Origin: an archaeon
GTDB lineage: Archaea > Nanobdellota > Nanobdellia > CSSed11-243R1
Assembly: GCA_024277205.1 (NCBI GenBank)
Contig: JAJRVP010000005.1
Span: 1 to 64,000, forward strand
Direction of reading: 5' to 3'
Length of the DNA stretch: 64,000 nucleotides
The notes beneath the pieces are model-generated. The model did not search any database and was not told the origin of the DNA. It worked only from the letters and a program-made list of their open reading frames with translations. Of this stretch, positions 266 through 64,000 are shown piece after piece; positions within the stretch are counted from its first letter, which is position 1, and each line of letters begins with the position of its first letter. Position numbers and translations under genes: made by a program.

Positions 266-330
266 TTACATCACCCCTAAACAAATCCTAGGTTTTTGAG
301 CTTTATAAATATTACTCTCTAGAATTGGAA

Positions 331-533
331 TGGGGCGATAGGGACTTTCCCAACCTTTTCTTTTGGTCGAGCTTTTCTTTTTAAGAAAAGGTCGTTTTGA
401 ACCCTAATCAGCGGGTCTCTTCAGACCCATTGTTCTTCATTGCCGCAATGGGCTCAGCGCTCCACAACTGAGTTCTGGAGCCCGCCGTTTTTGGCAGTAG
501 TTTTCCACTTCTACCAAGTTAAACTATCGCCCC
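331..533 (-). tRNA. tRNA-Trp(CCA) with three putative introns
   Basis: Acceptor GGGGCGA/TCGCCCC, anticodon stem GCGGG/CCCGC with loop CTCCAGA, T-stem TAGGG/CCCTA. Removing ~488-508 (21 nt, D-stem 3' side), 416-473 (58 nt, anticodon loop) and ~51 nt in the T-loop (within 344-398) leaves a 73-nt cloverleaf. Confidence 0.85.
344..398 (-). repeat. T-loop intron region of tRNA-Trp, nearly identical to 1285-1339
   Basis: 53/55 nt identical to the corresponding region of the tRNA-Arg gene by direct comparison. Confidence 0.85.
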
Positions 534-573
534 ACTCTTTAAAAAAATAGAAATTAAACTTATAAAGTTTTCA

Positions 574-1224: not shown

Positions 1225-1271
1225 TACCTCACCTTTATTTTCAATGTAACCAAAAGTTAAATATGTTATGA

Positions 1272-1486
1272 TGGCCCCGACGGGAATTTCCCAACCTTTT
1301 CTTTTGCTCGAGCTTTTCTTTTTAAGAAAAGGTCGTTTTGAACCCGCGACCTACTGCTTACACCCTTTTCCGCTTCGCGCAAAAGCGCGTCCGGAAAAAG
1401 TAGAAGGCAGTCGCTCTATCCAAATAGCTCCCTACCTTCTTGGCAACCTACCTTCTTACTAAGAAGGTGGACTGAGCTACGGGGCC
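1272..1486 (-). tRNA. tRNA-Arg(UCU) with three putative introns
   Basis: Acceptor GGCCCCG/CGGGGCC, D-stem GCTC/GAGC, anticodon stem ACTGC/GCAGT with loop CTTCTAA, T-stem GCGGG/CCCGT. Removing ~1423-1470 (48 nt, D-loop), 1359-1400 (42 nt, anticodon loop 37/38) and ~51 nt in the T-loop leaves a 74-nt cloverleaf. Confidence 0.85.
1285..1339 (-). repeat. T-loop intron region of tRNA-Arg, nearly identical to 344-398
   Basis: 53/55 nt identity by eye. Confidence 0.85.
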
Positions 1487-37611: not shown

Positions 37612-37642
37612 GAAACTTTTAAGAAAAGTTTCATCAAAAAAA
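37612..37642 (+). repeat. arm-loop-arm-spacer-arm element, family 1
   Basis: gaaaCTTTT-aag-AAAAG-tttcatc-AAAAAAAG, between convergent genes. Confidence 0.5.
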
Positions 37643-45623: not shown

Positions 45624-45764
45624 ATGTCAACAGGGAACAATGATGAAGTGTTGACACCCAATGAGGCGCAAGCCAATGAAATACAGGGTAGCTACAGAGT
45701 TCCCCGCACCTTTTTAGAAAAAAGCTGCACCAAAAAATTCTACACATTTTTAGAAAAAGTTTGA
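45624..45764 (+). CDS. short ORF whose C-terminus is encoded by the repeat elements
   Basis: MSTGNNDEVLTPNEAQANEIQGSYRVPRTFLEKSCTKKFYTFLEKV*; may be a remnant. Confidence 0.2.
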   Translation: MSTGNNDEVLTPNEAQANEIQGSYRVPRTFLEKSCTKKFYTFLEKV

Positions 45765-45771
45765 TCAAAAG
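45710..45771 (+). repeat. two tandem family-1 elements
   Basis: CTTTTT-aga-AAAAAG-ctgcacc-AAAAAA (45710-45737) and ATTTTT-ag-AAAAAG-tttgatc-AAAAG (45746-45771). Confidence 0.6.
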
Positions 45772-45985: not shown

Positions 45986-47410
45986 ATGACATTTATATTA
46001 TTCAACACGCTTGGGAGAAAAAAGGAAGAATTTAAACCGCTTGAAGATAATCTAGTTAAGATATATACTTGTGGGCCAACTGTTTACAATTTTGCACATA
46101 TTGGGAATTTTAGAAGTTATGTTGCACAAGATATTCTAAAGAGATATCTGCTTTACAAAGGTTTCAAAGTAAAACATGTTATGAATCTAACTGATATAGA
46201 TGATAAAACAATTAGGGATAGCCAAAAAGAAGGAATTTCTTTAAAAGAATTTACAGAAAGATATACAAAAGCTTTTTTTGAAGATTCTAAAAAACTAAAT
46301 CTCTTGCCAGCAGATATTTATGCAAAAGCAACTGAACATATTGAAGATATGCGAAAATTAATTCAAATTCTTCTTGATGAAGGATTTGCTTACAAAGGAG
46401 AAGACAATTCAATATATTACAACATTTCTAAGTTTAAAGAATATGGAAAACTTTCTGGTATAAAAGTTTCTGAACTAAAAGCTGGAGCAAGAGTAAAACA
46501 AGATGAATATGAAAAAGAAGAAGCAAATGATTTTGCACTTTGGAAAGCTTGGACTCCTGAAGATGGAGATGTTTTTTGGGATGTAAAATTTGTGATTAAT
46601 GGAAAAGAAGAAACAATTCGCGGAAGACCGGGTTGGCATATTGAATGTTCAACTATGAGTATGAAATACCTTGGGGGTACATTGGATATACATGCTGGTG
46701 GGGTTGATTTAATATTCCCACATCATGAAAATGAAATTGCTCAAAGTGAGGCAGCAACTGGAAAAATATTTTCAAGGTTTTGGTTCCACAATGAATGGGT
46801 AATTGTGGAAGGGAAAAAAATGTCAAAGAGATATAAAAATTTTTACACCTTACGTGACATTTTATCAAAAGGTTATAGTCCTAAAGCAATTAGGTATCTT
46901 TTAATGAATGCACATTATCGTTCGCAATTAAATTTCACATTTGAAGGACTAAAAGATGCAGAAACAACAGTTAATCGCTTAATAGAATTTATTGACAAAC
47001 TTGATGAGATTAAAAGTAGTAATTACAATGGAGACATTAAAAATTTAATTGAAAATGTAAAAGAAAAATTTGAATCTGCGATGGATGATGATATCAATAT
47101 GCCTCTAGCACTTTCAGCAATTCATGAGTTTGTTTCTGAAATAAATAAAGCAATTGCTCAAGGAAATTTTGATGAAAAGAATGCAAAAGAAGTAAAAAGT
47201 ATTATGTTGGAGTTTGACAAAGTTTTAGGTGTATTAGAGCATGAAAAAGTTGAAGTTCCAGAAGAAATTAAAAAACTTATCGAAGAAAGAGAAAATGCGA
47301 GAAAAGAAAAGAACTTCAAAAAATCAGATGAAATCCGCGAAAAGATTAGACAAATGGGTTGGGAAGTCCAAGATACACCAGAAGGACCAAAGGTAAGAAA
47401 GAGATTGTAA
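45986..47410 (+). CDS. cysS: cysteinyl-tRNA synthetase
   Basis: YTCGPTVYNFAHIGNFRSYV, KMSKRYKNFYTLRD, GWHIECSTMSMKYLG. Confidence 0.97.
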   Translation: MTFILFNTLGRKKEEFKPLEDNLVKIYTCGPTVYNFAHIGNFRSYVAQDILKRYLLYKGFKVKHVMNLTDIDDKTIRDSQKEGISLKEFTERYTKAFFEDSKKLNLLPADIYAKATEHIEDMRKLIQILLDEGFAYKGEDNSIYYNISKFKEYGKLSGIKVSELKAGARVKQDEYEKEEANDFALWKAWTPEDGDVFWDVKFVINGKEETIRGRPGWHIECSTMSMKYLGGTLDIHAGGVDLIFPHHENEIAQSEAATGKIFSRFWFHNEWVIVEGKKMSKRYKNFYTLRDILSKGYSPKAIRYLLMNAHYRSQLNFTFEGLKDAETTVNRLIEFIDKLDEIKSSNYNGDIKNLIENVKEKFESAMDDDINMPLALSAIHEFVSEINKAIAQGNFDEKNAKEVKSIMLEFDKVLGVLEHEKVEVPEEIKKLIEERENARKEKNFKKSDEIREKIRQMGWEVQDTPEGPKVRKRL

Positions 47411-47447: not shown

Positions 47448-47478
47448 TTTTTGGTGCAGCTTTTTTCTAAAAAGCTGC
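47448..47478 (-). repeat. family-1 element, inverted copy of 45711-45736
   Basis: 47448-47473 is the exact 26-bp reverse complement of 45711-45736. Confidence 0.7.
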
Positions 47479-47520
47479 AAGGAAAAGAATTTAAAACAAA
47501 CCTTTCTATTTTTAATTTAA

Positions 47521-47676
47521 GCGGGGTTGGCAGAGCAGCTATGCGGCGGACTGCAGTTCGTCAGCGGCGGATCTGGCTGAGGCGCCCGATGATGTGAAGA
47601 GATCCGTTCAGGGGGGTGCGACAAGCCGAACCTGGGCGATTCCTCTTAGATTCGCTCGCTATTCCCCCACCCCGCT
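47521..47676 (+). tRNA. tRNA-Cys(GCA) with anticodon-loop intron and probable T-loop intron
   Basis: Acceptor GCGGGGT/ACCCCGC with U73; anticodon arm GCGGA-CTGCAG[47557-47601]A-TCCGT; T-stem GGGGG/CCCCC separated by 47 nt, implying a ~40-nt insert; mature ~71 nt. Confidence 0.75.
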
Positions 47677-47697
47677 TTTTAGTTAAATGGTGGTAAA

Positions 47698-61575: not shown

Positions 61576-64000
61576 ATGGCTGAAGAAGAAAATGAGATTG
61601 TTGAAAAAAACACCAAAGAAGAAATTGAAATTGATTTCAATAAAATCGCCTCATTTTTTAAAAATAATCAGCGTATTCTTATTTATTTGATTTTGATTCT
61701 TTTGTTGATTGGTGGAGCATATTCGAGAACTCGGAATGTTTCAAATTTAGAAGGCAAATATCTTGTCAGTCCAGATGACCCCTATGTCTTTTTAAGATAT
61801 TCAACGTATGTAGCTGAAAATGGAAAACTTCCTGCAAATGACACTCTAAGGTATTACCCGGATGGTTTTGATGCTACTCGGGAAAATGCGTTTATGGCAT
61901 ATCTTGCGGGTTATTCATTCAAATTTGCAAGTGCTGTGAACCCGGAGGTTTCAATGTTTGACATTGCTGCTTATTTGCCACCTTTGCTATTTGTAATTGC
62001 TTTAATCTCATTTTTCTTTTTATTAAAAGAAATATTTAATGATGAACTCACTGCTTTGGTTTCGACAGGAATTTTGGCATTTTCGCCAGCAATTTTATTA
62101 AGAACGGTTTCTGGTTTTTTAGAAAAAGAACCAATCTTCTTGCCATTATTTTTTATATCAATGTACTTTTTTGTAAAAGCATATAACCTTTTTTCAGAAA
62201 AAAGCTTAACCAAAAAAGATAAAAGAAAAATTTATCTCTTCGCATCCCTTTGTGGAATCTTCACTGGACTTGCTGCTTTTGCATCAGGACTTTTCTTTTT
62301 TATTGTAATCTACATTTCTGTATTTTTAATAGTTGAAGTCTTGTTGCAGAAAATGAATAAAAATAAACTTATTATTTACATTCTTTGGTTTATTTTTACT
62401 CTTGTAGTAACCTCATTAACAACAACAAAATATGGTGGCTTTTTCAGATTTTACAAACCAATTCAGTTTCAATTGCCAATAATCGCTCTTATTTTTGGAT
62501 TTGTTTCAGTTGGATTTGATTCAATCAAATGGTTAAGATTAATAAAAGAAAAACTTAGTTTTATCCCAAAAGGTTTGTTATACTCCTTTATCACATTTTT
62601 TATTATCCTACTCGGTGGATTGATAGTACTTGGACCATCTGGATTTGTAGCTAAACTTGGTTTCTTGTGGGAAAAAGTGATGATTCCTTTTGGCACTACA
62701 AAAATGGCTGCAAGTGTAAGTGAGAATCAACCACCTGTATTCCTTGGAAGAGGAAGCAGCTGGTGGAATATTTTTGGGGTTGTATTCTTAATGTTTTTCT
62801 TGGGAGCAATTGCATTATTTCACAAAGAGTTCAAAAGATTTAGGTATGGAAAATATTTAGTTAGTGTATTTCCATTATTTTCATTAGCATTGGTTTTTGA
62901 AAACTTTTCGCATGAATTAAAACATAGATGGATTACAATTTTATTCTCACAGCAGTGGTTCTTTATGTTATTATTTGGATTAACTTTCATAATCTTCTTA
63001 TTTTTAGAACATAAATCTCATGAACATATTGAAAAGATTAATTCAATCAATTTATTAGTCATTGTTTGGTATCTTGTTTCAATTGTTGCTGCAAATGGGG
63101 CGGTTAGATTATTTTTTATAATGGCAACACCTGCTGCAATGCTGGCGGGATATTTTATAAAGTGGTGTAAAGAACAAATTCCTAAATTCTCTAACAAAGA
63201 AATTTTGCAATATGTACCGCATCTTCTCATCGCAGCCTTTGTAATATTCTCATTTGTTAATGTCTCAAGTGCTGTGGCGCATATGAAACCTGGTTTGGGT
63301 ATTTGGTATGAATCAATGAATTGGATAAAAGAAGATACTCCAGAAGATGCTATTTTTACGCATTGGTGGGATTATGGGTACCTAATACAAACCATGGCAA
63401 ACAGAAAAACTGTTGGGGACCCTGGTAATTTCTATAAAGAACGCAACTATGATGTTGGTGGACATGTGTTTAATGCATTTAACAATTCAGAAATCTTATG
63501 GTTTACAGATAAATACAATTTAACTGACAAAGATGTTTATCTATTGATTCCATCTGAAGACATACTAAAATTTGTTCAGATAGCTAAATTAGGTAGTTTA
63601 AGCGAGGGAACGTCTGGAAGAGAAGTTTATTTCACATTATTTGGAGTTACAGATCCAAAAAAAGACATAATCCCTAATAATCTAAAGGAATACTCAGAGT
63701 ATCCAATGTTGATATTATATGAACCCCTAACAGGACAACCACAGATTCTAGAAGATTTTAGAATTGGGAATTATGTTTATTCTGGTAATAAAACATTTAT
63801 CCTTAGATATCTCCAACCTGCTTCGCAAAACAAAACAGGACCTTTGCTTGTACAAATTTTTGATGCCACAACTCAAAAAACAAAAATTTTCCCTGTAAAA
63901 TGTATTTGTGAGATTAAAAGAGATTGTTATGATTTAAATGAAACTGGTGTTCCAACTTGTGCTTTAAGAATCCAAGGCGGGATATTGAATATCCCCCACA
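61576..64000 (+). CDS. aglB: AglB/STT3 oligosaccharyltransferase, C-terminus beyond window
   Basis: VSPDDPYVFLRYSTYVAENG; SGFLEKEPIFLPLFF; THWWDYGYLIQTMANRKTVGDPGNFY; open to window end. Confidence 0.93.
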   Translation, partial: MAEEENEIVEKNTKEEIEIDFNKIASFFKNNQRILIYLILILLLIGGAYSRTRNVSNLEGKYLVSPDDPYVFLRYSTYVAENGKLPANDTLRYYPDGFDATRENAFMAYLAGYSFKFASAVNPEVSMFDIAAYLPPLLFVIALISFFFLLKEIFNDELTALVSTGILAFSPAILLRTVSGFLEKEPIFLPLFFISMYFFVKAYNLFSEKSLTKKDKRKIYLFASLCGIFTGLAAFASGLFFFIVIYISVFLIVEVLLQKMNKNKLIIYILWFIFTLVVTSLTTTKYGGFFRFYKPIQFQLPIIALIFGFVSVGFDSIKWLRLIKEKLSFIPKGLLYSFITFFIILLGGLIVLGPSGFVAKLGFLWEKVMIPFGTTKMAASVSENQPPVFLGRGSSWWNIFGVVFLMFFLGAIALFHKEFKRFRYGKYLVSVFPLFSLALVFENFSHELKHRWITILFSQQWFFMLLFGLTFIIFLFLEHKSHEHIEKINSINLLVIVWYLVSIVAANGAVRLFFIMATPAAMLAGYFIKWCKEQIPKFSNKEILQYVPHLLIAAFVIFSFVNVSSAVAHMKPGLGIWYESMNWIKEDTPEDAIFTHWWDYGYLIQTMANRKTVGDPGNFYKERNYDVGGHVFNAFNNSEILWFTDKYNLTDKDVYLLIPSEDILKFVQIAKLGSLSEGTSGREVYFTLFGVTDPKKDIIPNNLKEYSEYPMLILYEPLTGQPQILEDFRIGNYVYSGNKTFILRYLQPASQNKTGPLLVQIFDATTQKTKIFPVKCICEIKRDCYDLNETGVPTCALRIQGGILNIPH
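62188..62218 (+). repeat. family-1 element inside aglB coding sequence
   Basis: CTTTTTT-cag-AAAAAAG-cttaacc-AAAAAAG, in frame as LFSEKSLTKK. Confidence 0.5.

What the first reader, a model, noticed from the sequence alone, without database searches (positions are those of the whole stretch)
45710..45771. Dispersed palindromic element family sharing the tRNA T-loop intron architecture
Elements at 37612, 45710, 45746, 47448 (minus) and 62188 follow the order: 5' arm, 2-3 nt loop, 3' arm, 7-nt spacer, second A-rich copy of the 3' arm. Spacers are TTTCATC, CTGCACC, TTTGATC, CTGCACC and CTTAACC; the tRNA introns have CTCGACC and CTCGAGC. All fit YTNNANC. I infer one family, with the tRNA T-loop introns as members or source. 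I know of no described family matching this, though A/T-rich hairpins can arise by chance.
Basis: partly seen in the sequence, partly recalled or inferred. Interest (0 to 1): 0.85.

Follow-up and report, generated by a model that had tools for sequence, protein, structure and literature searches.

The report
Archaeal hairpin repeats, often tRNA introns
The window holds copies of a real, widespread archaeal repeat (a tiny hairpin followed by a mirror-image purine tail) that has inserted between genes, inside a protein gene and into rRNA and tRNA genes, where it forms the body of predicted introns; it may show how archaeal tRNA introns are gained, though neither splicing nor the moving machinery was observed.

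Summary
Observation confirmed, interpretation partly right. The motif occurs 48 times in the 684-kb host genome against 0 for the reversed motif; a structural scan gives 54 against 0-4 in Markov controls. The host is a Nanoarchaeota-type (DPANN) archaeon. The anatomy differs from the report: the 'spacer' closes the hairpin (NN-A-x-Y-arm / R-arm-x-T-N'N'; NN complementary in 175 of 185 elements), and the 'second copy' is a mirror image of the purine arm, not a direct copy. This Y-R-mirror-R order matches the E. coli BoxC/PIT 'class II intrastrand triplex' repeats, but linker, sequence and domain differ. At least 35 of 37 detected tRNA genes carry introns (71); 40 introns hold an element, nearly all in sense orientation. 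Relatives show clean empty sites in 16S, 23S and tRNA genes, between a stop and a start codon (near-identical strain copy), and in-frame in STT3 (window 62184). The motif is archaeal (116 of 119 hits), with 25-64 copies in methane-oxidising (ANME-1) genomes. Best reading: a mobile DNA hairpin family whose insertions into stable-RNA genes persist as bulge-helix-bulge introns. Mover, splicing and triplex formation are not shown.

The parts
37612..37640 (+). Element, subtype 2 (A-T in place of the C.C mismatch; ATC): GAAA CTTTT AAG AAAAG TTTCATC AAAAA; between two convergent genes
   Evidence: intergenic stretch absent from same-genus ortholog
45706..45737 (+). Element, subtype 1: GCAC CTTTTT AGA AAAAAG CTGCACC AAAAAA; directly 3' of a conserved small ncRNA-like sequence
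   Evidence: G001 ortholog carries a different subtype (core CCTGCACT) at the same place
45743..45771 (+). Second, degenerate tandem copy (TTTTTAG AAAAAG TTTGATC AAAAG; NN does not pair)
47448..47478 (-). Element GCAG CTTTTT AGA AAAAAG CTGCACC AAAAA, between the end of ORF 45986-47410 (+) and a disrupted tRNA-like gene on +
   Evidence: absent from the G001 ortholog interval
62184..62218 (+). Element TAAC CTTTTTT CAG AAAAAAG CTTAACC AAAAAAG, in-frame in the STT3/AglB-like ORF that starts at 61576; adds about 8-9 residues (NLFSEKSLT)
   Evidence: all seven aligned homologs lack these residues
357..394 (-). Element inside the T-loop intron (345-395) of a tRNA-Arg gene with 3 introns (330-534)
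1298..1335 (-). Element (core CTCGAGC) inside the T-loop intron (1286-1336) of a second tRNA-Arg gene with 3 introns (1271-1486)
330..534 (-). Disrupted tRNA-Arg gene, introns 490-510, 419-476, 345-395
   Evidence: splice-aware alignment; missed by ARAGORN and Rfam
1271..1486 (-). Disrupted tRNA-Arg gene, introns 1425-1471, 1361-1402, 1286-1336

Best explanation
A superfamily of very small archaeal interspersed DNA elements (about 30-40 nt plus about 8-12 nt of 3' extension per insertion). Each is a pyrimidine/purine hairpin with a short covarying foot (NNA/TN'N', usually next to a C.C mismatch), a short core, and a tail that mirrors the purine arm (class II purine-motif intrastrand-triplex order Y-R-R'). 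Shown: copies insert and turn over; they are tolerated between genes, at tRNA ends and in a variable protein loop. In tRNA and rRNA genes they sit in sense orientation as the body of introns; typically the NNACC foot can pair with a 3' GGTNN and the intron's last bases with exon bases, giving a bulge-helix-bulge (BHB) site. Inferred: the elements move as DNA, perhaps through a folded single strand; insertions into stable-RNA genes survive only where EndA and RtcB can remove them, so the elements act as seeds of archaeal tRNA/rRNA introns. The enzyme that moves them is unknown, probably supplied in trans.
For: Family: 48 vs 0, 54 vs 0-4, superfamily 93 in G000 and 82 in G001 vs 3-7. Anatomy: NN complementary in 175/185, compensatory pairs vs shuffles and slides; mirror tail 45/62 and 140/194 perfect vs 5 and 20 direct, shuffle maxima 26 and 79. 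Insertions: 16S, 23S, tRNA, stop|start junction with a near-identical empty strain copy and an empty outgroup, STT3 in-frame, uS9-RpoN junction. Host sites: 35 of 37 tRNA genes with introns, 71 introns, 40 of 70 examined introns with an element; 37 sense vs 2 antisense; same 66-nt intron in Gln, Thr and Arg tRNAs, and different element families at the same site in relatives. BHB: 35% vs 7% in controls; perfect in 16S; EndA gene present. Elsewhere: 116 of 119 GTDB stretches archaeal; 25-64 copies in ANME-1 genomes; 102 of 130 intergenic where 14% of DNA is.
Against: No transposase or other mover identified; Y1 transposase and LAGLIDADG_3 absent from the host genome. No constant 3' boundary: the extension beyond the tail differs in each empty-site comparison. 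The strict BHB criterion is met by only 35% of element introns, partly because exon borders from alignment are imprecise. One case (AsnRS 3' end) fits deletion between the NNACC repeats as well as insertion. Splicing and triplex formation are untested; A/T-rich purine triplexes are expected to be weak. All data are metagenome-assembled genomes.
Confidence: 0.62

Rival explanations
1. Introns first: ordinary BHB introns spread between tRNA and rRNA genes by reverse splicing or recombination (as in Thermoproteales), and intergenic copies are escaped or retroposed introns.
For: Near-identical 66-nt introns in Gln, Thr and Arg tRNAs; strong sense-strand bias in tRNA genes; intron transposition is described in Thermoproteales, mechanism unknown (PMC4090602).
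Against: The polarised intergenic insertion (C19 vs C3 and G001) has no GGTNN or exon-complement end; ANME-1 and related genomes carry tens of mainly intergenic copies with no strand preference and no significant flank pairing; the mirror tail has no known role in splicing.
Confidence: 0.2
2. REP/PATE-like non-autonomous elements moved by a Y1 (RAYT, IS200/IS605) transposase.
For: Small hairpin with a foot mismatch, intergenic, inverted pairs with a second hairpin type in ANME-1.
Against: No GTAG/CGTC tag; the foot is variable. Y1 absent from host genome, genus and family; six of the eight genomes with at least 9 copies in the class sample lack it, and several Y1 carriers have 0-1 copies.
Confidence: 0.08
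3. A functional RNA motif (terminator, processing or protein-binding site) conserved at transcript ends and in introns rather than a mobile element.
For: Copies abut tRNA 3' ends, 23S and an ncRNA; T-rich arm.
Against: No orientation rule relative to neighbouring genes in other archaea; insertion in-frame in a coding gene and on the antisense side of an operon junction; a U-rich terminator inside tRNA genes would be harmful.
Confidence: 0.08
4. Chance A/T-rich hairpins.
For: A+T-rich genome.
Against: Controls; covariation.
Confidence: 0.01

Closest known systems
BoxC / PIT / TM_ECO intrastrand-triplex repeats of Proteobacteria (PMC4666352)
   Same: Order Y-arm, loop, R-arm, linker, third purine strand matching the mirror of R (class II purine motif); tens of intergenic copies, no strand bias; two types found as inverted pairs, as in ANME-1; linked to locus instability; no known mover.
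   Different: BoxC is G/C-rich with a 3-nt linker and, in the three E. coli copies read here, no pairing between linker and 5' flank. The archaeal family is A/T-rich with a 7-8 nt core and covarying foot, is archaeal, and populates tRNA/rRNA introns.
tRNA intron transposition in Thermoproteales (Fujishima et al. 2010, as summarised in PMC4090602)
   Same: Similar introns in tRNAs of different isotypes and positions; mechanism unknown.
   Different: Here the intron bodies belong to a repeat family that also exists outside introns and in other phyla, with empty sites.
Archaeal BHB introns (EndA/RtcB spliced)
   Same: Exon-intron pairing of BHB type, rRNA and tRNA sites.
   Different: Intron bodies share a repeat with mirror tail and covarying foot.
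REP/REPIN-RAYT elements
   Same: Short hairpins, intergenic, sometimes paired.
   Different: No GTAG/CGTC tag, no Y1 transposase in the host.
Rickettsia palindromic elements (from general knowledge)
   Same: Palindromic insert kept in-frame in a protein gene (STT3).
   Different: Much smaller; in-frame insertion is the exception.

Membership tests
BoxC/PIT (TM_ECO) | Class II order Y-R-reverse-Hoogsteen R (mirror) | tested here: met
   perfect mirror 45/62 and 140/194, above all shuffles; definition
BoxC/PIT (TM_ECO) | Consensus CCCTCNCCC N3-6 GGGNGAGGG N3 GGGNGAGGG | tested here: not met
   A/T-rich arms, 7-8 nt core; consensus
BoxC/PIT (TM_ECO) | Intergenic, no strand bias | tested here: met
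   102/130 intergenic in other archaea, no orientation rule; differs in tRNA genes
BoxC/PIT (TM_ECO) | Folds into an intrastrand triplex in vitro | not testable with these tools
   needs CD, NMR or footprinting
Archaeal BHB intron | 4-bp central helix with 3-nt bulges at both splice sites | tested here: met
   perfect in 16S; for tRNA introns as a group enriched only: 35% vs 7% control under a strict rule
Archaeal BHB intron | Host encodes splicing endonuclease | tested here: met
   PF01974 hit C6:16881-17141, E 1e-29
Archaeal BHB intron | Intron is removed from the RNA | not testable with these tools
   no RNA data
Transposed tRNA introns (Thermoproteales type) | Near-identical introns in different tRNA isotypes | tested here: met
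REP/RAYT or IS200/IS605-derived | Y1 transposase in host | tested here: not met
   (draft genome, 92% complete)
REP/RAYT or IS200/IS605-derived | Invariant tetranucleotide tag at hairpin foot | tested here: not met
   foot NN variable and covarying
LAGLIDADG-mobilised introns | Homing endonuclease in genome | tested here: not met
   PF14528 absent in G000; 2 matches in G001. Other LAGLIDADG families not tested

The most novel reading that the evidence does not exclude
Archaeal tRNA and rRNA introns in these lineages are domesticated insertions of a triplex-type mobile DNA hairpin family that is shared by horizontal transfer between DPANN symbionts and ANME/methanogen lineages: a general route of intron gain, and the archaeal counterpart of bacterial BoxC repeats.
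Probability: 0.38. Interest if true: 0.9.

Novelty: new variant of a known kind. Interest (0 to 1): 0.76.

Why it matters
[quoted passage not shown] Here the intron bodies belong to an interspersed repeat family with recent insertions outside introns, so intron gain can be followed as an insertion event. It also links bacterial intrastrand-triplex repeats, whose movement and function are unexplained, to archaea. In practice, about three quarters of the detectable tRNA genes of this genome fall below the standard Rfam tRNA threshold (9 over it; at least 37 found), largely because of such introns.

Tried and rejected
Target-site duplication (NNACC...NNACC): rejected as the general rule, because NN in the spacer is the reverse complement of the upstream NN; identity arises only for self-complementary NN. 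Insertion into the loops of pre-existing inverted repeats: flank complementarity no better than shuffled pairs in other archaea. Direct-copy tail: mirror fits better. Y1 and LAGLIDADG_3 movers: absent from the host. Transcription terminator: no orientation rule. tRNA-CCA mimicry of ACCA (considered, not computed): other subtypes have ATC, ACG, ACT, AGG. ARAGORN with excised candidate introns gave only 8 tRNA-linked elements, so a splice-aware alignment was written; one version had a window bug and its output was discarded. Rfam finds nothing in the window. A covariance model was not built; pattern and structural scans with controls served instead.

Full report
Observation. All five listed sites and the two tRNA introns are present. 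AAAAGYTNNAYCAAAA occurs 48 times in the 684-kb host assembly and its reversed control 0 times; in the window there are 8 hits with up to 1 mismatch against 1.3 expected. A structural scan (foot, arms, loop, core, tail) gives 54 against 0-4 in Markov genomes. Widening to all core types gives 93 in the host and 82 in a same-genus genome against 3-7. That genome, G001, has contigs of the same lengths as the Nanoarchaeota MAG AUK188 records, so the host is a Nanoarchaeota-type DPANN archaeon.

Anatomy. The element reads 5'-NN A c C-Y-arm - loop of mostly 2-5 - R-arm-G y T N'N' - A y C - mirror(R)-3'. N'N' is the reverse complement of NN in 175 of 185 elements (shuffled mean 69, maximum 85). On 23 distinct sequences with fixed arms, the two foot pairs show 24 cells changed on both sides, against 6 in shuffles and 0-1 in slid versions. 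The base before T is usually a C.C mismatch followed by ACC (139 cases) or an A-T pair followed by ATC (17). The tail is the mirror of the R-arm: perfect in 45 of 62 host elements and 140 of 194 others, against 5 and 20 for a direct copy and shuffle maxima of 26 and 79. Long arms show it plainly: TTTCTCTTTT ga AAAAGAGAAA CGTGCACG AAAGAGAAAA. Main cores are GCTNNACC, CGTNNACG, CCTNNACT, CCTNNAGG and GTTNNATC. Single-strand DNA folding gives the hairpin, with z-scores of -1.6 to -5.8.

Where it sits. Rfam finds only 9 tRNA genes over threshold in the host but about 40 in each of two class-mates. A splice-aware alignment with class-mate tRNAs finds 37 tRNA genes, 35 with introns, 71 introns, up to four per gene, at D-loop, anticodon-loop, variable and T-loop positions. 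Of 70 introns of 20 nt or more, 40 carry an element. In tRNA genes 37 elements are in sense and 2 in antisense orientation. BHB geometry (central helix at least 3 of 4, inner helix at least 3) is met by 35% of element introns against 7% of slid controls. A splicing endonuclease gene is present. Outside tRNA genes, elements lie between genes, at stop codons, directly 3' of 23S rRNA, and within 0-7 nt of tRNA ends in several genomes.

Insertion evidence. (a) 16S rRNA: 44 nt, ACACC-hairpin-GTACCAAAGAAGGTGCGGTAA, present in G000, absent in G002; exon ACCG-TG^A with intron CGGT-AA^A is a perfect BHB. (b) 23S rRNA: 47 nt in G003, absent in G002 and G000. (c) tRNA genes with intronless orthologs, e.g. 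His, and an Arg T-loop site whose syntenic counterpart in G002 is intronless. (d) Contig C19 against C3, flanks about 95-98% identical within the same assembly: 48 nt inserted between a stop and a start codon; C3 and the outgroup G001 are empty, so this is most simply a gain, with the 5' boundary exactly at NNACC. (e) uS9-RpoN junction: element in G000, 4-nt spacer in G001. (f) Window 62184: eight to nine residues in an STT3/AglB-like protein that seven homologs lack. (g) Turnover: at shared tRNA sites relatives often carry a different element family, and one 66-nt intron recurs in Gln, Thr and Arg tRNAs. At the AsnRS 3' end deletion between the NNACC repeats explains the data as well as insertion.

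Distribution. ANME-1 genomes hold 25-64 copies (controls 0-1). In other archaea 102 of 130 elements are intergenic although 14% of the DNA is, without orientation rule. In ANME-1 the element is often followed by an inverted hairpin with the CCTNN(A/G)CT core. In other DPANN phyla it again occurs inside tRNA genes.

Interpretation. The order Y-R-mirror(R) is that of class II purine-motif intrastrand triplexes, known from the BoxC/PIT repeats of Proteobacteria: intergenic, unoriented, sometimes in inverted pairs of two types, associated with locus variability, mover unknown (PMC4666352). Three E. coli copies read here show no pairing of the linker with the upstream flank, so the covarying foot is an archaeal feature. 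That paper states that purine-motif triplexes do not form in RNA; if the mirror is kept by triplex formation, the relevant state is DNA. This is inference. My preferred reading is a mobile DNA hairpin family whose insertions in tRNA and rRNA genes persist when they happen to complete, or evolve, a BHB. Shown: family, anatomy, distribution, insertion. Inferred: DNA-level movement, removal by EndA/RtcB, order of events. Unknown: the mover. Y1 transposase is absent from host genome, genus and family and does not track copy number; LAGLIDADG_3 is absent from the host.

Limits. Metagenome-assembled genomes; tRNA borders come from alignment; a strain variant within one assembly is used for the most recent insertion; no RNA data.

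Noticed in passing
window 45632-45704 (+): Conserved small ncRNA-like sequence (terminal stem GGGAAC/GTTCCC, box-C-like ATGATGA) upstream of the elements at 45706/45743; conserved in G001; no Rfam match.
   Followed up: partly
window about 47518-47690 (+): Disrupted tRNA-like gene on the + strand, ends GCGGGG.../...CCCCGC; the G001 ortholog interval also holds a LAGLIDADG-like ORF.
   Followed up: partly
G000 contig ends (C1/C20, C1/C6, C2/C10, C2/C8, C3/C19, C7/C13): Contigs overlap at their ends at 96-99% identity without being merged, suggesting strain variation; one overlap differs by an element insertion.
   Followed up: partly
ANME-1 loci, e.g. L063, L070, L096: The element often lies between a repeat resembling CACAGATTACACAGATTTCCAC and an inverted second hairpin TTTTCTTTTAGCACAGG..., forming a larger composite repeat.
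   Followed up: no
L033, L072, L087 (tRNA 3' side); L052, L056, L106 (tRNA 5' side, antisense): Elements abut tRNA genes within about 1 nt, with the element's 5' foot next to the tRNA; a target preference or a selection effect.
   Followed up: partly
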